This document shows, piece after piece, positions 23,676 through 46,883 of a DNA stretch of 47,223 nt. Every line of letters starts with the position of its first letter. The stretch's first letter is position 1. Below the pieces are notes generated by a model. That model was not told where the DNA came from and did no database searches. It saw only the letters and a program-made list of their open reading frames with translations. A program made the translations under genes and the position numbers. Source of the stretch: an uncultured Enterorhabdus sp. (GTDB lineage Bacteria; Actinomycetota; Coriobacteriia; Coriobacteriales; Eggerthellaceae); assembly GCA_947573925.1 (NCBI GenBank), contig CANPHS010000004.1:1-47223 (forward strand), written 5' to 3'.

Positions 23676-23694
23676 GAACTCCGTGGGAGTAACA

Positions 23695-39547: not shown

Positions 39548-41461
39548 CTATGCGTTGTCGCAATCTGGGTCTGTTCCGAAAAGCGCTTCGGGGTTGCTCG
39601 CGCAGTCGATCACTTCGACTGCGCTGCCGATTTCTCGAATGATCTCGGCATCCCGGGGGCTATCGACAAACACCTTTTCGCAATGACGAAGGCAATAGGC
39701 TACGGCATCGGACGAGAACCCGTCCCCTTCATCGCTCAATACGTGCTTAAGCTCATCGGTGAAGAAGATGTGCAATGGATAGGGGGCGCAGGCAAGGGCC
39801 AGGAGGATGTCGATGTTGCGAACATCGAGGGCAAGGACGAGGGAAAAGGGCATCCGTCCCCACATGCGCTCTGCCGCTAAACGATATTCTTGTTGGAGAT
39901 AGCGCATGGCAACGGAGAAGGGCAGCAGGCGCAATGTTGCAAGTTGCCTGATCTTTTTTCCTGCGTTGCTGAGTCGAATTTCCGGATCGATGCCGATGAC
40001 GGGTACGTTGAAGAGAAGCGGATAGGCTGTCTTTCGATTTTGGCTCACGGCCCGCTTGTCGCATCCGACGAAAAGATTGCAATGAGCACTGTCCCGGTGA
40101 CTCACTAACTGCTGGAGCAAGGCGGTTTGGAGGTGATCGTCGCACGTTTCCGCGAATATCAACATGTTGGGCGCACCCTCTGACTGCAGGGTTTCGATGG
40201 CGAGATCGGAATCGGGGGTTTCCTGGAACAGGCTGCACAGCTTCCGTGTGTTTTCCGGGGTGTCAAAGGGGCAGAATGATTCCCGAGCATTGCCGTCGTC
40301 GTAGGTCTTGCCCTGTGAAAGTGCTTCGAAAACCGCCTCTTTTGTATGGGCGATATCGAAGGGCAGGTTGGTGATGTCGAGATACATCCCGCGCTTCTTC
40401 TCGTAGAGGGAGAGATCGGGGCAATAGAGGATGATGTGGCGGCCGGTGGCAAGGTAATCGAAGAAAACGCTCGAATAATCGGAAATGAGAGCGTCGGCGA
40501 CAGCAAGCACCTGGTAGGTGTCTAAGGTTGCGGGGAATTGTCGAATATGTTCAAAGCGATCGTAATCCACCGAGTCGTTTATCTTATGGTGCAGGTTAAC
40601 GTACAAAATCTGGTCGTTGCTCAGATGCCCATCGAGGTATTCAAGCAACTCGATGCATTCGGAGACAACCTGCTCGGGTTTAAGGTAGTCTTTCCAGGTT
40701 GGCATGTAGGCGAAAACCGTCTCGCCGTTGGGGGCAAGTTGTTCCCGTAGAGCCTCGCATGTTTCTTCTGCTGCCTGCAGCATGCCTCCCGTACGCGGGT
40801 ATCCCAACATGAGGGCATTGCCCTGCAAGAGATTGCCCACGCGATAGGCCTCGGCCATATGGTCTTTGGTGTAGTAGTTGGGGTAGAGAAGGTAATCGGC
40901 GTTGACGAAGTCCCTCTGCTTTACCCCCGACAGATGATTGTTACGAGCGTGCTTGTCACTGCCGAGGTTTTTCAGCGGCGTGCCATGCCAGATATTAATG
41001 TAAACTTGGTCGGGCTTTTTTACCCAGCTGGTGGGCATGTTGACCTCGGTGAGAACGTATTTGACGCGGGCGAGCAGCTGGTCGTATTCCACAGGGTCGG
41101 CAACGGGCGTGGTACGGTGCCAGTTGTACCGGTCAATGAGCTCACGAAGATGGTCGATGGTTTCCGGAGAGGCCTTTACGTAGATGCGGTAGTCCTCAAA
41201 CCGCTCGGAGCTATTGAGCTCCTCCAAAAGGTAAAAGAGATTTCCCCGAACGGACGATCCGAGACCCACCAGCATGATGGTGTTATCTTCCACATCGTTT
41301 TCGAAATAGTAATCGGTAACGGTGCGACCGTCGTCGCTGAGCCCAAGCTTCCTGAGGGATTGAGCCACAAGGCGATATCGCTCCACGTCAGTCAAGCCGG
41401 AGTTCGAGTTCCTGAGAGCCCAGCGCAATGTGAGGGCATAGGCGCGGTTGCGAAGATTCAT
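39548..41461 (-). CDS. CDP-glycerol glycerophosphotransferase family protein with extra C-terminal domain
   Basis: A 637-residue protein. The transferase region carries YINIWHGTPLKNLGSDKHAR, VFAYMPTWKDY, LHHKIND and LISDYSSVFFDYLATGRH. Residues about 430-637 form an additional domain starting PNMLIFAETCDDHLQ, with alternating strands and helices suggestive of a partial GT-B glycosyltransferase half. Similar two-part proteins are seen in teichoic acid loci, but I cannot assign a donor. ATG 41461 has AAGG before it. The stop lies 13 bases from that of the convergent pyruvyl transferase gene. It is divergent from the acyltransferase gene. Confidence 0.83.
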   Translation of the reverse strand: MNLRNRAYALTLRWALRNSNSGLTDVERYRLVAQSLRKLGLSDDGRTVTDYYFENDVEDNTIMLVGLGSSVRGNLFYLLEELNSSERFEDYRIYVKASPETIDHLRELIDRYNWHRTTPVADPVEYDQLLARVKYVLTEVNMPTSWVKKPDQVYINIWHGTPLKNLGSDKHARNNHLSGVKQRDFVNADYLLYPNYYTKDHMAEAYRVGNLLQGNALMLGYPRTGGMLQAAEETCEALREQLAPNGETVFAYMPTWKDYLKPEQVVSECIELLEYLDGHLSNDQILYVNLHHKINDSVDYDRFEHIRQFPATLDTYQVLAVADALISDYSSVFFDYLATGRHIILYCPDLSLYEKKRGMYLDITNLPFDIAHTKEAVFEALSQGKTYDDGNARESFCPFDTPENTRKLCSLFQETPDSDLAIETLQSEGAPNMLIFAETCDDHLQTALLQQLVSHRDSAHCNLFVGCDKRAVSQNRKTAYPLLFNVPVIGIDPEIRLSNAGKKIRQLATLRLLPFSVAMRYLQQEYRLAAERMWGRMPFSLVLALDVRNIDILLALACAPYPLHIFFTDELKHVLSDEGDGFSSDAVAYCLRHCEKVFVDSPRDAEIIREIGSAVEVIDCASNPEALFGTDPDCDNA

Positions 41462-41617: not shown

Positions 41618-42731
41618 GTGACTAAGGAGCGTTTGGCATATTTCGACAATTTGAAAGGCGTGTTGATCATTCTGGTGGTTATCGGGCATTTGCTCGAACC
41701 ATGTGCTCGGTTGGGAAGCGAGGGTTTGGCGGGTTTTCGTGTTCTCGATTTCATCTATATGTTTCATATGCCTCTCTTCATCTTCGTGACTGGGCTGTTC
41801 AGTAAGGGTGTCTTCAGACAGGGCCGTTTCCGGGCTGAAGTGCCTCTGTTCTACTTCGCCATTTGCTTTCTGCTGTATACGGGGCTTATGGTTGAGAAGT
41901 GTCTTTTGGGGGCGCATGTTTCCTTCAATTACCTAACGCTCAACGGACGCATTCCCTGGTATTTGATGGTTGCGGGTTTTTACGTGTTGGGCGTTCCCTT
42001 CTTCGTGCGGCTTAGGCCCGTCGTGGCTCTGGGGGGGGGGTCTGGCAATTTCCGTGCTTGCGGGGTTGGTTGATGGTACCAATATGCTTTCAGCATCGCG
42101 GGCTGTTACATTCCTGCCGGTATTCTTGGCAGGTTTCTATCTTTCGCCAGACACCATTATTGCCCGCATGAAGGGAGGCAACCTGGCTCACCGTCGGTTT
42201 GTTGCGGGGGCGGCGGTGATAACAATTGCTGCTGCAATCATGTTTTTCCAGTTTTGCGGACTCAAAAAATTGGAATTCTTCCTCAATATGTTTTATGGAA
42301 AGTGTTCTTACGCGGACATGCTGTCCGCGTCGGGGCTCGATTTGCCTCTGATTGTCTGTATGCTGCTGCGGTTGTTGTCCTATGCTGCCATCGCGGTTAT
42401 TGGCGTCGCTCTTTTTATTCTTCTGCCGACGGGACGCGTGCCGATGCTTACTAATGCGGGCGCGCGCTCGCTCCAGATCTATGTTTTGCACCCGTTTGTT
42501 TACTACGCATTAAGTTCTGTCAGGTTCACCCAGAATGTCTTCGCCTTGCTGCCTCCCGTTGGAGCAGTGGCAGCTCTCATGTTGCTGGGAACGGTTCTTG
42601 CGTTGCTGCTCAGCATGTCTGATGGGCCTCAACGTGTCTTCGATGAGATGAAGGCACGCATCGGTCGCTGGGTTGATCGCCAAGCTCCCGAAGCTAGGGG
42701 CGATCAAAGTACTGGGGGTGCGTGCTCGTGA
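41618..42731 (+). pseudogene. Acyltransferase family 3 membrane protein, frameshifted at a 10-G tract (possibly phase-variable)
   Basis: GTG 41618 with AAGGGGA upstream. The first frame gives an AT3 N-terminus (YFDNLKGVLIILVVIGHLLEP, with the conserved His; HMPLFIFVTGLFSKG) and stops at 42071-42073, shortly after the tract. The second frame, open to 42731, continues the same protein with several membrane helices and an LQIYVLHPFVYY segment. With nine Gs the two halves join as LGGGLAISVLAGLV, giving a protein of about 370 residues. Such enzymes O-acylate surface sugars. The tract at 42031-42040 therefore looks like an OFF state of a slipped-strand switch. A sequencing miscall of the homopolymer is the other explanation. 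Confidence 0.85.
42031..42040 (+). repeat. Poly-G tract (10 G) in the acyltransferase gene
   Basis: Ten consecutive Gs follow GTGGCTCT. This long homopolymer lies exactly where the reading frame breaks; 9 or 12 Gs would restore it. Confidence 0.9.
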
Positions 42732-43956
42732 CGCGGGCGTAAGCCAGGGGATTGCCGATGAAGTAGATGGCATCGGCGCCGGAATCGTCGATGCGGCCCT
42801 GAAGGGTCTCCGGTCCTTCGTTGTCGTTCTTCAAATCGAGAACGCATTGGCTGTCACGATAGTCTTGGGCGACTAGCCAGTGAAAGGCATCGCCGAACGA
42901 ATCCATGGCAATAAGGGCCTTTTGATCGGTGGTGGGAGTGGAGTTTGTAACGGTTAGATCGGCAGTTACGTTGGTAGACCCGTACCATGTGGAATAGAAG
43001 TCGAACACTGATCCCATGGCGTCGTCGTGGATGAGGGAGGGCCCATCGGGCTCAACGATGGGCGGGATGCGCGGACCGGTTGCCTCGATGCCCGTTAGGT
43101 CGAGCTGAGGTTCCCGAGCCGATTCGTTGATGAGCATGAGGCCTTTGCGGGCGTAAGATCCGTTGGTAATGATGCCGGGAAAATCGACGGTTTCCGCGTC
43201 GTTGTCGCGACGGTTGGAGAGGCCGGCGACCTCTTGCAAGGCGTTGTAGGCGCGAAGGGCGCCATAGCCGTTCCAATGGTGGTCGGAACGGTAGAAATCG
43301 CGATAGTACTCCTCGGGCTGATCGTAGCGGATGCTGACCAGCCGAACGTTGGAGGCCTCGGCCACGGCTCGCTCGAGTACCTTCACGCAATCATCAGTTG
43401 AATAACGTTGAGAGACAAGGAACGCTGCGGGATTGGCATTCGAGGTATCTGATTGATCTGCAACGACCATGTAGAACTGCTTGTCGGGGTTGGCGTTCGC
43501 CGTGGCGATGAGGCCATCGACGAACTCCTCGGTCGATTTTGTTTTGCTTTTCTTTGCATGCTCGGGTATCTTGGCCAAGGCGTCGCTGGCGGGCAGGTAG
43601 ATCTGCTCGCTGCCAAAGAAGGTGGGATACGCCTCGAACCGGAAGAGGGCGTTCGAAGCTGCAATGGCGCTCCGCTGCATCGCGGCGTTCTGAAGAAGAA
43701 TGACGGCGCGATAGGGGATGCTGTTCTCGACGGTGGTGTTCAGGTCATCTTGAAACTTCTCGGCCGAGAAGCCTTTCAGGGAAAAATGTTCCAGAAGATC
43801 GACCTCTTCATAGCCGCCCGAAAGATAGGTGGAGTCTTCGGCCGTAAGGTCGCTGGGCAAATCGAGCTTCCAGTGCGTCTGCGCCACCCAAAGGGTCATC
43901 GGGCCCAGCAGGAACAGGCAGAAAACTGTAGCGACAATGGCATTCCGTACTTTCAT
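42694..43956 (-). CDS. DHHW/AlgX-AlgJ-like O-acyltransferase partner protein
   Basis: A 420-residue protein with one N-terminal membrane anchor (about residues 5-25) and an extracytoplasmic SGNH-like domain. The DHHW motif is at D225-W228 (RSDHHWNGYGALRAYNAL), and a Ser in AMDSFGDAFHW (S353) completes a likely Asp-His-Ser triad, as in AlgX and AlgJ. With the MBOAT protein encoded immediately upstream, it would move acyl groups onto the surface polymer. The ribosome-binding site GGGGG precedes the ATG. Its last 38 bases overlap, tail to tail, the end of the acyltransferase-3 frame. Confidence 0.83.
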   Translation of the reverse strand: MKVRNAIVATVFCLFLLGPMTLWVAQTHWKLDLPSDLTAEDSTYLSGGYEEVDLLEHFSLKGFSAEKFQDDLNTTVENSIPYRAVILLQNAAMQRSAIAASNALFRFEAYPTFFGSEQIYLPASDALAKIPEHAKKSKTKSTEEFVDGLIATANANPDKQFYMVVADQSDTSNANPAAFLVSQRYSTDDCVKVLERAVAEASNVRLVSIRYDQPEEYYRDFYRSDHHWNGYGALRAYNALQEVAGLSNRRDNDAETVDFPGIITNGSYARKGLMLINESAREPQLDLTGIEATGPRIPPIVEPDGPSLIHDDAMGSVFDFYSTWYGSTNVTADLTVTNSTPTTDQKALIAMDSFGDAFHWLVAQDYRDSQCVLDLKNDNEGPETLQGRIDDSGADAIYFIGNPLAYARVTSTHPQYFDRP

Positions 43957-43965
43957 GGCTGCCCC

Positions 43966-45489
43966 CTAGAACTGGAAGTAGATGAACGGGTTGTAGGAGC
44001 TGGAGACTACGGACATGGCCGACAGCACCAGCACGGCCAGAAGCGCCACGTCCACGGCGATGTTCACGGCCAGGACGGCGCGGGCCCGGGCGGGGGAGGC
44101 CGCCGGAGCGGCTAGCTCGGCCTGGCAGGGCGGCACGGCCTCGTTGCCCTTGGCGGGCGCGGCCATGACGGCGCGGCGCGGGTCGCCCTCGGCCCAGGCC
44201 TGAAGCTTCTTGCGCAGCCACGGCGCCCAGGGCAGCGACCCCACGATGAAGATGGGAATGAGGCTCACGTAGCTCCACGACTGGAGCTCCCAGAGCGTGC
44301 TCGTGCCCGTGAAGCCGTAGGCGCCGAACATGGCGCAGAACCACTCGGCCACGTTCGAGAGCCCCGTGACGGCGAACAGCAGCCAGCCGAAGAAGAACAG
44401 CACGGCGCACCAGATGTGGCTCACGAAGCCGGGCAGCCGGTCGAGCACCTTCATAATGAAGAACTTCTCCAGCAAGATGAGGACGCCCCAGTACAGGCCC
44501 CACAGCACGAAGTTCCACGCCGCGCCGTGCCAGATGCCGGTGAGGCCCCACACGATCATGGTGTTCAGGACGAACCGCGGGGTGGACACGCGGTTGCCGC
44601 CGAGCGGGATGTACACGTAGTCGCGGAAGAAGCCGCCGAGCGACATGTGCCAGCGGCGCCAGAACTCCGTGGCCGACTTGGAGGTGTAGGGGTAGTTGAA
44701 GTTGCGCGGGTAGTCGAAGCCCATCATCTTGCCGAGGCCGATGGCCATGTCGGAGTAGCCCGAGAAGTCGAAGTAGATCTGGAAGGTGTAGGCGGCCACG
44801 CCCGAGAAGCAGCCCACGAAGCCGATCTCGGCCGCCTCGCGGGGCAAAAGCGAGTCGGCCAGCGTGCCGGCGGTGTTGGCCAAAAGCACCTTCTTGCCGA
44901 GACCCACGCAGAACAGGCGCAGCCCCTGGGCGAAGCCGGCCAGGGTGGCCCGGCGGTTGTCGATCTCGGCCTCGATGTCGGAGTAACGCACGATGGGGCC
45001 GGCCACCAGCTGCGGGAACATGGCGATGTACATGCCCAGATACAGCGGGTTCTTCTGCGCCTTCACCTGGCCGCGGTACACGTCCACCACGTAGGTGATG
45101 GCCTGCAGGGTGAAGAACGAGATTCCGATGGGCAGCGCCAGGTTAAGCTCGGCGATGAACTCCTCGCCGATGGCGCGGTTGACGTTCTCGGCCAGAAAGC
45201 CCTGGTACTTGTAGAAGCCCAGGATGAGCAGGTTCAGGAAGAGGTCGGCGACGAGCAGGAACTTGCGCAGGGGAGGGGTCGCGCTCTTTGAGATGGCGAA
45301 GCCGAAGGCCCAGTTGAAGCCGATGGAGAAGACCATCAGCCACACGTAGACCGGCTCGCCCCAGGCGTAGAACAAAAGCGAGAAGGCCAAAAGCACGATG
45401 TTCTTCGCCGCCCGTTTCGGCATGAGGAAGTACACTGCCAGAAACGCCGGCAGGAAGGCGAAGAGAAACACAGAGCTGGAAAAGACCAT
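43966..45489 (-). CDS. MBOAT-family O-acyltransferase (AlgI/DltB-like)
   Basis: A 507-residue protein with about ten membrane helices that carries acyl groups across the membrane. The conserved histidines are H281 (FWRRWHMSL) and H321 (LTGIWHGAAWNFVLWG). LPIGISFFTLQAITYVVDVYRG and YFDFSGYSDMAIGLGKMMGF are typical of the AlgI branch. The DHHW protein gene starts 9 bases after its stop, and the pair forms an operon. Codon use is much more GC3-rich than in its neighbours, matching the core genome half of the window rather than this locus. DltB is a relative, but no dltA or dltC is nearby, so D-alanylation is unlikely. Confidence 0.92.
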   Translation of the reverse strand: MVFSSSVFLFAFLPAFLAVYFLMPKRAAKNIVLLAFSLLFYAWGEPVYVWLMVFSIGFNWAFGFAISKSATPPLRKFLLVADLFLNLLILGFYKYQGFLAENVNRAIGEEFIAELNLALPIGISFFTLQAITYVVDVYRGQVKAQKNPLYLGMYIAMFPQLVAGPIVRYSDIEAEIDNRRATLAGFAQGLRLFCVGLGKKVLLANTAGTLADSLLPREAAEIGFVGCFSGVAAYTFQIYFDFSGYSDMAIGLGKMMGFDYPRNFNYPYTSKSATEFWRRWHMSLGGFFRDYVYIPLGGNRVSTPRFVLNTMIVWGLTGIWHGAAWNFVLWGLYWGVLILLEKFFIMKVLDRLPGFVSHIWCAVLFFFGWLLFAVTGLSNVAEWFCAMFGAYGFTGTSTLWELQSWSYVSLIPIFIVGSLPWAPWLRKKLQAWAEGDPRRAVMAAPAKGNEAVPPCQAELAAPAASPARARAVLAVNIAVDVALLAVLVLSAMSVVSSSYNPFIYFQF

Positions 45490-45606: not shown

Positions 45607-45612
45607 TATACT
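45607..45612 (+). promoter_or_regulatory. Candidate -10 box of the GT2 gene
   Basis: TATACT lies 48 bases before the glycosyltransferase ATG in the intergenic region divergent from the MBOAT promoter. The -35 region is poor. Confidence 0.4.
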
Positions 45613-45659
45613 TGATCAGCAATCGTCTGAAATCTTACTTTGACCGAGAAGGTGTTTGC

Positions 45660-46883
45660 ATGATGGATCCGTCCTCTCAACCAGTTGTTTCGGTAGTGGT
45701 TCCTGTTTACAACACAGAGCGGTACCTGCCCGAGTGTCTCGATAGTCTGCTTGGCCAGTCGTTAAACGAGATTGAGATCATCTGTGTGGACGATGGCTCC
45801 ACTGATGGTTCATTGGGGGTATTGGAGAGGTATACATCGGTTGATGTTCGCATTAAAGTCCTCACTCAGAGTAACTCTTTCGCTGGCGTGGCACGTAACA
45901 ACGGAATGAAGCACGCCAGAGGCGAGTACATCGTTTTTTGCGATTCCGATGACTATTTGGCTGCCAATGCCTTGGAGAAAATGTACGCCCAATGCAAAGC
46001 AGACGATGCAGATATATGCGTATGTGCTGGAGAGCGCTTTTATGAAGGTCTTGGGCTGACGGTGCCTTCGCCGGGATACCTTGAAGTGAAGCGCATTCCT
46101 GAGGTAATGCCATTCAATCGATATACGAATGCGGATCATATATTCAGCTTCACTACCATCATGATGTTCAACAAAATGTTTCGCCTCTCATTCCTGCGCG
46201 ATCACCATTTGGAATACGGGCACACCAGAAACGGGGAAGACGTTCATATCTGCGCTATGGCGCTCTGGCTTGCGCAGCGCATCACTGTTGTGAAGGAGCC
46301 GCTCGTTTTCTACAGAATCGATCGTCCTGATAGCCTGGTCGGAACGTTGGCTGAATCAGCTGTGGATCCGTTGCGTGCGTGGATGAGCGTGTGGGAAGAG
46401 ATAGGTACCGATCTGGGTTGTTCTGAGCGCAGCTTTGTTTGTAAGGTACTGGGGGTGATGCGCCACTGTTTTCGCAATGTATCTACAGCTACCGCTTTTG
46501 CTGCATGTTATCAGTTTGCGAGGGACAACATGGTCCGCCAGTTGGATCTCCGGGTGCGTCCCGAAGGCTACTATTACACTCCTTGGTACAACGTGTTCGT
46601 CGCACAACTTCTTTCAGATAGCGAATCGGATTTTATGGCGCATATGCTGTATACGGCCGCTCGCGATCTGGAGGCAGAGGGGGCAAAGAAACTCGATTTT
46701 CGTCAAAAGATGAGAGAGGAAAGGAGACGGAACAAAGCTTTGGACACGCAGTTGCAGCGGAAGAGGAGGGAGTACGATCAACTACGGCGCAAATTTTCTA
46801 AGGTCGAATGGGTCTACAAACTGGGGCGAGCGATGCTGCGTCTGCCGCGAAAGATTAAGAAAGCTTTCGCGGCAGACAAATAA
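45660..46883 (+). CDS. Glycosyltransferase family 2
   Basis: A 407-residue GT-A fold enzyme. SVVVPVYNTERYLPECLDSL opens the nucleotide-sugar fold, ICVDDGSTDGS follows, and the metal-binding DxD is DSD in VFCDSDDYL (residues about 95-97). The C-terminal 60 residues are a basic coiled coil ending in a Lys/Arg-rich amphipathic segment, which suggests membrane or partner contact. ATG 45660 is chosen because AGAAGG precedes it; the TTG at 45612 lies within the -10 box. It probably adds a sugar to the polymer or its linkage unit. Donor and linkage cannot be inferred. Confidence 0.9.
   Translation: MMDPSSQPVVSVVVPVYNTERYLPECLDSLLGQSLNEIEIICVDDGSTDGSLGVLERYTSVDVRIKVLTQSNSFAGVARNNGMKHARGEYIVFCDSDDYLAANALEKMYAQCKADDADICVCAGERFYEGLGLTVPSPGYLEVKRIPEVMPFNRYTNADHIFSFTTIMMFNKMFRLSFLRDHHLEYGHTRNGEDVHICAMALWLAQRITVVKEPLVFYRIDRPDSLVGTLAESAVDPLRAWMSVWEEIGTDLGCSERSFVCKVLGVMRHCFRNVSTATAFAACYQFARDNMVRQLDLRVRPEGYYYTPWYNVFVAQLLSDSESDFMAHMLYTAARDLEAEGAKKLDFRQKMREERRRNKALDTQLQRKRREYDQLRRKFSKVEWVYKLGRAMLRLPRKIKKAFAADK

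What the first reader, a model, noticed from the sequence alone, without database searches (positions are those of the whole stretch)
42031..42040. Poly-G switch in a surface acyltransferase gene
A run of ten Gs coincides with the point where one acyltransferase-3 protein is split into two frames. Removing one G fuses the halves seamlessly. Long poly-G tracts in surface-modification genes are classic slipped-strand phase-variation sites in Campylobacter, Helicobacter and Bacteroides; I know of no such established case in this lineage. If real, acylation of the polymer would be switched at random between cells.
Basis: partly seen in the sequence, partly recalled or inferred. Interest (0 to 1): 0.78.

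Follow-up and report, generated by a model that had tools for sequence, protein, structure and literature searches.

The report
Likely poly-G switch, surface acyltransferase gene
In a gut bacterium related to Adlercreutzia, a gene that probably decorates a cell-surface polymer is broken exactly at a run of ten Gs, and the pattern of such runs in its relatives suggests a slippage switch that turns the gene on and off at random, although no change in run length has yet been seen directly.

Summary
G10 at 42031-42040 is the only G or C run longer than 6 in the window, and it sits where an acyltransferase-3 protein (PF01757) changes frame: profile 2-145 upstream, 163-325 downstream. An uninterrupted homolog aligns across the seam without a gap. 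The genus is Adlercreutzia (Eggerthellaceae).

Indirect evidence favours a slipped-strand contingency locus. (1) Eight congeners hold 206 runs of at least 9 against 81 of exactly 8, while 249 ordinary genes of one of them hold none of 7 or more (codon-shuffle expectation about 53). (2) An AT3 homolog in another genus has an in-frame G9 a few codons away. (3) Of six congeners with the neighbouring MBOAT/DHHW acylation pair, three carry an in-frame 9-mer in it and a fourth has its MBOAT broken between contigs at a run of 8 or more. (4) Tracts elsewhere break or border methylase, HsdS, glycosyltransferase and surface-protein genes.

Length variation was not shown. The draft has poly-G artefacts, so G10 may be misread. 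A fixed frameshift remains possible.

Poly-G switches are known in Bifidobacterium; my searches listed none for Coriobacteriia. New member of a known kind.

The parts
42031..42040 (+). G10 tract at the frame junction (putative slippage site)
41618..42073 (+). upstream part of the acyltransferase-3 gene (GTG start; its frame reaches TGA 10 codons after the tract); holds a K-X10-H motif
   Evidence: (PF01757 positions 2-145)
42039..42731 (+). downstream part of the same protein in the next frame (open ORF listed as 41970-42731); an in-frame ATG lies at 42084
   Evidence: (PF01757 positions 163-325)
42694..43956 (-). DHHW-like protein, convergent with the acyltransferase and overlapping its 3' end; counterparts in G005 and G008 carry an in-frame G9 at one shared place
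   Evidence: PF14286, 21.2 bits, below the cut-off of 25
43966..45489 (-). MBOAT O-acyltransferase; the ortholog in G006 carries an in-frame C9 where the window reads CCCCTCCCC; that of G004 is broken between contigs at a run of G8 or more at about the same codon
   Evidence: (PF03062)
39548..41461 (-). CDP-glycerol glycerophosphotransferase domain protein, divergent from the acyltransferase
   Evidence: PF04464
35474..37012 (+). second CDP-glycerol glycerophosphotransferase domain protein
   Evidence: PF04464
37483..39534 (+). polysaccharide pyruvyl transferase
   Evidence: PF04230
27875..29692 (+). TarL-like protein of the same locus
   Evidence: NF041713, 237 bits, below its cut-off of 1000
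45612..46883 (+). family 2 glycosyltransferase
   Evidence: PF00535

Best explanation
The acyltransferase-3 gene is a simple-sequence contingency locus. Replication slippage adds or removes Gs in the tract. Lengths in one class modulo 3 give a full-length membrane acyltransferase (ON). The other two classes end translation shortly after the tract or in a wrong frame, separating the part with the K-X10-H motif from the rest (OFF). The assembled length, ten, is an OFF length. The gene lies between a glycerophosphotransferase gene and an MBOAT/DHHW pair, so the trait switched is probably O-acylation of a cell-wall polymer. Shown: tract, frame break, continuity of the homolog across the seam, the same tract design in related acylation genes and other switch-type genes. 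Inferred: slippage in living cells, reversibility, substrate, benefit (phage, immune or antimicrobial escape).
For: Seam exactly at the tract, with halves contiguous on homolog L011. AT3 homolog L013/L206 of another genus has its own G9, in frame, a few codons from the same place; its genome has only 6 tracts of 9 or more. Six congeners hold the MBOAT ortholog at 59-92% identity: G006 has an in-frame C9 in MBOAT, G005 and G008 an in-frame G9 at one shared place in DHHW, and G004 a run of G8 or more at both contig ends where its MBOAT breaks, at residues 70-75, the place of the G006 tract. Post-hoc Poisson chance of the three 9-mers in six pairs is 5e-4, and with the AT3 homolog (1 of 7) 3e-5 (for the other six). 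Across 8 congeners: 198 runs of 7, 81 of 8, 206 of 9 or more; in the family 9-or-more outnumbers 8 in 93 of 138 genomes. A methylase-like gene in two congeners keeps a tract at the same place as C10 and C9, both copies frame-split. The downstream half stays open for 229 codons.
Against: No second isolate or reads were available, so no length change was seen. No match to the gene's DNA in the 8 other genus genomes. The tracts found in acylation genes of relatives whose frame could be read are all 9 long and in frame, so none shows an alternative state. The downstream half is more diverged from its nearest homologs than the upstream half (31% against 64% to L011; L011-L012 63% against 73%), and is also farther from L013 (23%) than L011 is (32%), which fits a mosaic gene or relaxed constraint. 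Five of the six AT3 homologs examined carry no tract. Another congener's PF01757 gene is split with no long run at the break, so plain frameshifts or errors also occur. The draft has poly-G artefacts. Of 96 tracts tested, 46 lie in no long frame, and several lie beside housekeeping-type domains. G002 has one tract only, and in 33 of 138 family genomes runs of 9 or more are fewer than runs of 8.
Confidence: 0.7

Rival explanations
1. Sequencing or assembly error: the true tract is one base different in nearly all cells, the gene is intact, and its length does not vary meaningfully.
For: The assembly is a 213-contig draft with poly-G clusters at contig ends and an interior G39. The four in-frame tracts found in relatives' acylation genes are all of length 9.
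Against: A G9 would still be a long tract of a kind missing from ordinary genes and would itself be a slippage site. The excess of long tracts is clear in the six-contig G001 (36 of 9 or more against 16 of 8), though marginal in the single-contig G005 (9 against 8).
Confidence: 0.13
2. Fixed pseudogene: a one-off indel in the tract disabled an accessory gene that is now drifting.
For: The downstream half is more diverged from near homologs than the upstream half; a split AT3 gene without a long run at the break exists in another congener; the gene is absent from the 8 other genus genomes searched by DNA.
Against: No stop in 229 codons downstream. Similarity of the downstream half to outgroups L014 and L015 (24%, 28%) is like that of intact L011 (25%, 21%), though not to L013 (23% against 32%).
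Confidence: 0.12
3. Programmed slippage during expression: RNA polymerase or the ribosome slips on the G run so that a fraction of full-length enzyme is made from one fixed DNA length; or the downstream part is re-initiated at the ATG at 42084.
For: A long homopolymer is a slippage-prone template (general knowledge); an in-frame ATG begins 11 bases after the last base of the upstream stop (sequence).
Against: The relatives' acylation-gene tracts that could be read keep the frame rather than a conserved shifted frame; no clear ribosome-binding site before that ATG (by eye).
Confidence: 0.05

Closest known systems
Bifidobacterium breve sortase-dependent pilus loci bbr_0113 and bbr_1889 (PMC9187656; abstract and passages seen)
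   Same: Intragenic G11 and G10 tracts split one gene into two ORFs; lengths vary in the population; same phylum; gut commensal
   Different: Pilus genes, not an acyltransferase; length variation measured there by Maximum Depth Sequencing, not here; different class
Haemophilus influenzae oafA, a phase-variable AT3 (review PMC9558356, passages seen)
   Same: An AT3 surface O-acetyltransferase that is phase-variable; the review says the first genome sequence carried a frameshift
   Different: Tetranucleotide repeats (from the title of a reference in that review); Gram-negative lipooligosaccharide
Staphylococcus aureus icaC (PMC4117637, abstract and passages seen)
   Same: Slipped-strand frameshift switch in a gene of surface-polysaccharide synthesis in a Gram-positive
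   Different: Tetranucleotide repeat; polymer PIA/PNAG
Gardnerella homopolymer tracts (PMC11287997, passages seen)
   Same: Actinobacteria with many G/C tracts of 8 or more; length change of one repeat shown by Sanger sequencing
   Different: About 70% of G/C tracts lie upstream of genes; no acyltransferase case in the passages seen
Eggerthella lenta capsule switching (preprint PMC13174815, passages seen)
   Same: Same family; reversible variation of a surface polysaccharide
   Different: Works by megabase-scale inversion; the words homopolymer, poly-G and slippage do not occur in its text

Membership tests
Simple-sequence (slipped-strand) phase-variable locus | Long mononucleotide tract inside a coding region | tested here: met
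   G10 inside the PF01757 gene
Simple-sequence (slipped-strand) phase-variable locus | Tract at the frame junction, so that length sets the reading frame | tested here: met
   Split pair open 140/229 codons, best single frame 32/31; homolog contiguous across the seam
Simple-sequence (slipped-strand) phase-variable locus | Tract not expected from composition or coding | tested here: inconclusive
   Not exceptional against dinucleotide shuffles (25 of 100); exceptional against ordinary genes and the run-length distribution
Simple-sequence (slipped-strand) phase-variable locus | Tracts of differing length, in and out of frame, in homologs | tested here: inconclusive
   One AT3 homolog of another genus has in-frame G9, but a few codons away and the other homologs examined have none; the relatives' MBOAT/DHHW tracts that could be read are all 9 and in frame
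Simple-sequence (slipped-strand) phase-variable locus | Length varies within a clonal population and switches a phenotype | not testable with these tools
   No reads, no second isolate
Pfam PF01757 Acyl_transf_3 | Profile score above the curated cut-off | tested here: met
   Upstream half 35.7 bits against 31; downstream half alone 25.4, below it
Characterised AT3 O-acyltransferases (OafB, Oac, OatA type) | R-X10-H in the first helix (called absolutely conserved in PMC9833829, passages seen) | tested here: not met
   K-X10-H instead, shared by the five homologs aligned; so filed as a PF01757 protein, not as this characterised type
Characterised AT3 O-acyltransferases (OafB, Oac, OatA type) | Demonstrated acyl transfer | not testable with these tools
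   No assay
Wall-teichoic-acid-type polymer locus | CDP-glycerol:polyol-phosphate transferases with a TagO-like initiator and ABC export genes | tested here: inconclusive
   PF04464 proteins, Glycos_transf_4 and ABC2_membrane present; the TarL model scores far below its cut-off; the label TagO-like is mine; polymer unknown

The most novel reading that the evidence does not exclude
Many Eggerthellaceae carry a poly-G 'phasome': up to dozens of slippage switches per genome in surface glycan acylation, surface proteins and DNA methylases, with O-acylation of one wall polymer switched through different enzymes (AT3, MBOAT, DHHW) in different species.
Probability: 0.5. Interest if true: 0.7.

Novelty: new member of a known kind. 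Interest (0 to 1): 0.55.

Why it matters
If real, clonal populations of this gut commensal would be mixtures of cells with and without an acyl decoration on their wall polymer, which could decide phage adsorption, immune recognition and strain-level assays. It would also warn that 'pseudogenes' split at poly-G runs in Coriobacteriia annotations, methylases included, may be switches caught in the OFF state. The claim is cheap to test by deep sequencing of existing isolates.

Tried and rejected
A codon-usage classifier for the frame on either side of tracts called even the window gene non-coding and was dropped. It was replaced by open-frame lengths, themselves confounded by chance ORFs in GC-rich DNA; that test used tracts with at least 600 bases on each side in the window and chosen loci, not the later loci L186-L205.

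Ortholog tract comparison for the window gene itself failed: no DNA match in the 8 other genus genomes, none in plasmids, and no relative confirmed in named genomes from the downstream half.

A second split PF01757 gene, G004:C32, looked like support but has no long run at its break, so I count it against. That the G006 and G005 tracts are orthologous was rejected: one is in MBOAT, the other in DHHW. That the tract sits at the very same codon in L013 was rejected: it is a few codons away.

My first chance estimate for the acylation tracts, about 3e-4, used only loci I happened to hold, two of them fetched because of their tract. On checking I searched the MBOAT in all nine genus genomes. That removed the bias, found a further tract in G008 and the contig break in G004, and gave the figures now used: for six congeners 5e-4 for the three 9-mers, 3e-5 with the AT3 homolog; if all eight congeners are counted, 1e-3 and 9e-5. 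They remain post hoc and treat tracts as evenly spread.

The 400 kb sample of G001 was chosen at round coordinates after I had seen the tract list and holds no tract of 9 or more, so it is used only for runs of 8 or fewer and for codon statistics. The 69 tract-adjacent ORFs given to Pfam (one further query was a neighbour gene) were my choice of plausible frames, several from one tract, not all tracts; 26 had a match at E of 0.001 or better, two of them below the curated cut-off (L056, L134).

Full report
What is there. A run of ten Gs occupies 42031-42040; no other G or C run in the window exceeds six. It lies in a 1.1 kb gene whose upstream part (41618-42073) matches PF01757 Acyl_transf_3 at profile positions 2-145 and whose downstream part (within ORF 41970-42731) matches 163-325. 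The two parts are in neighbouring frames and change over at the tract. The best single frame there is open for only 32 and 31 codons, while the split pair is open for 140 and 229. Aligned apart to the uninterrupted homolog L011, the upstream half ends and the downstream half begins at the same residue, 198.

Chance. By composition alone a G10 is not rare: 25 of 100 dinucleotide shuffles of the window hold one, and 14 of 300 order-3 simulations hold a G or C run of ten or more. Real genes tell otherwise. In 249 ordinary genes (328 kb) of congener G001, synonymous-codon shuffling predicts about 36, 14 and 3 runs of length 7, 8 and 9, and none were observed. The genes were picked by a codon-usage model; elsewhere in the same 400 kb are six runs of 7 and one of 8. 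Long G/C runs are thus rare in ordinary genes, and those that remain need a reason.

Where it is. The window is contig C4 of a 2.42 Mb draft of 213 contigs, 85% complete. The Glycos_transf_4 gene at 23683 is 97% identical in protein to Adlercreutzia caecimuris B7, so the organism is an Adlercreutzia or a very near relative (Coriobacteriia, Eggerthellaceae). The gene sits in a wall-polymer-type locus: Glycos_transf_4, ABC2_membrane, a TarL-like protein (far below its cut-off), two PF04464 proteins, a pyruvyl transferase, MBOAT, DHHW (below its cut-off) and a family 2 glycosyltransferase. AT3 and MBOAT are acyl-transfer families, so O-acylation of that polymer is the natural inference; the substrate is not known.

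Tracts in relatives. Whole-genome counts for eight other genus genomes give 198 runs of exactly 7, 81 of exactly 8, and 206 of 9 or more. In one (G006) the counts are 8, 1 and 22; in another (G002) 12, 5 and 1, so the excess is not universal. Over 138 genomes of the family, runs of 9 or more outnumber runs of 8 in 93, are fewer in 33 and equal in 12. The window's own genome has 57, but many lie at contig ends and one interior run is 39 long, which points to poly-G sequencing artefacts. Among 96 tracts of 9 or more in the loci tested, 24 lie in a frame open at least 80 codons on both sides, 26 only in shifted frames, 46 in neither. For 297 control runs of five in G001 the figures are 226, 23 and 48.

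Acylation genes. (a) The PF01757 homolog L013/L206 of another genus (local BLAST identity 42% and 32% in the two halves, 34% and 23% over the full alignment) has a G9 in frame, coding Gly-Gly-Gly, a few codons from the window's tract. That genome has only 6 tracts, and the gene's neighbour is a beta-helix protein distantly like those of the window locus. The six other AT3 homologs found in the family have no run of 8 or more in their loci. (b) In G006 the ortholog of the window's MBOAT (91.5% identical, full length) carries an in-frame C9 where the window reads CCCCTCCCC. (c) In G005 and in G008 the DHHW gene next to MBOAT (85% and 81% identical) carries an in-frame G9 at one shared place, in the sequence SWGGVALPSW. 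(d) In G004 the MBOAT is broken between two contigs: one ends and the other begins with eight Gs, at residues 70-75, the place of the G006 tract; its true length is unknown and it is not in the census of 9 or more. Of six congeners with the MBOAT ortholog, G001 and G002 have no tract in the pair as fetched, nor has the window. The post-hoc Poisson estimate is 5e-4 for the three 9-mers in six pairs and 3e-5 with the AT3 homolog; over all eight congeners it is 1e-3 and 9e-5. Against this, every one of these tracts that could be read is 9 long and in frame, so none displays an OFF state. The ten PF01757 loci of the genus fetched (of 19 matches listed there) have no run longer than 7; one of them, in G004, is split with no long run at the break.

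Other switch-type genes. Of 69 tract-adjacent ORFs chosen by me, 26 gave a Pfam match. They include fn3, CAP, choline-binding, C69-peptidase and leucine-rich surface-type proteins, two N6/N4 DNA methylases, two cytosine methylases, an HsdS, GmrSD, Abi_2, a family 2 glycosyltransferase and a hexapeptide-transferase/glycosyltransferase protein. They also include AMP-binding, FAD-binding, AraC, ATP-synthase C, ABC-transporter and metallo-beta-lactamase-fold domains that do not fit the classic list. A cytosine-methylase gene shared by A. caecimuris and A. mucosicola (74% DNA identity) keeps the tract at the same place with C10 in one and C9 in the other, and both copies are frame-split; the Pfam match rests on the A. 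mucosicola upstream half alone (23.9 bits against 22). Large ORFs of over 1000 codons, in several copies, share the flanks AGAAAACTCGAT and TCTCTGTGATTT, with small differences, around 9 or 10 Gs.

Decay or not. Upstream/downstream identities are 64/31% to L011 and 62/29% to L012, against 73/63% between L011 and L012. To outgroups L014 and L015 the window's downstream half is 24% and 28%, and that of L011 25% and 21%; to L013 it is 23% against 32% for L011. So the downstream half is unusually far from its nearest relatives, which suggests mosaicism or relaxed constraint, but it is not clearly degraded relative to outgroups and has no stop in 229 codons.

Mechanism. The best reading is reversible slipped-strand mispairing of the tract that joins or separates the two frames. 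The upstream part has the histidine motif (as K-X10-H, not the R-X10-H described for OafB-type enzymes in PMC9833829, passages seen). Either part alone is expected to be inactive (inference). Slippage itself has not been seen.

Literature. Poly-G switching of split genes is published for Bifidobacterium pili (PMC9187656, abstract and passages), homopolymer variation for Gardnerella (PMC11287997, passages), phase-variable AT3 in Haemophilus and Salmonella (review PMC9558356, passages), and a slipped-strand switch in S. aureus icaC (PMC4117637, passages). For the family I found inversion-based capsule switching in Eggerthella lenta (PMC13174815, passages) and prophage-related variation (PMC8778435, passages). 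Searches pairing Coriobacteriia, Eggerthella or Adlercreutzia with phase-variation terms listed no homopolymer switch in this class among the rows shown: 20 of 257, 15 of 425, 4 of 4, 10 of 189 and 0 of 0 papers. The library holds open-licence papers only.

Verdict. It is a new member of a known kind, in a class where I found no published case.

Noticed in passing
L142, L146, L156, L170, L171 (A. mucosicola-like G003) and L056 (G001): ORFs of over 1000 codons (cut by the locus ends) in several copies share the flanks AGAAAACTCGAT and TCTCTGTGATTT, with small differences, around 9 or 10 Gs near the ORF start; no match above a Pfam cut-off. Possibly a phase-variable family of large proteins.
   Followed up: partly
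L076 around 3002 and L144 around 3001: A cytosine-methylase-like gene in two Adlercreutzia species keeps a C tract at the same place with different lengths, and both copies are frame-split.
   Followed up: partly
L166 around 3000: A type I specificity gene (PF01420) changes frame at a tract of ten between two Methylase_S matches.
   Followed up: no
L209 5463-5475: A C13 tract close to the end of a TarL-like match, in the same polymer locus of G006 that carries the C9 in MBOAT.
   Followed up: no
L228 end and L218 start (G004:C40 and C61): The MBOAT gene of G004 is divided between two contigs that end and begin with eight Gs, so the assembler stopped at a homopolymer inside the gene.
   Followed up: partly
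G004:C32:18189-19195 (L179): Another PF01757 gene split in two frames with no long G or C run at the break, either a plain frameshift or a sequence error.
   Followed up: partly
G000:C48:7556-7594 and many contig ends of G000: A G39 run and clusters of poly-G/poly-C near contig ends look like sequencing or assembly artefacts in this draft.
   Followed up: no
L134 2997 and 3658: Two near-identical 609-base stretches in G003 carry C13 and C11; they differ by one substitution that shortens the run, not by slippage.
   Followed up: no
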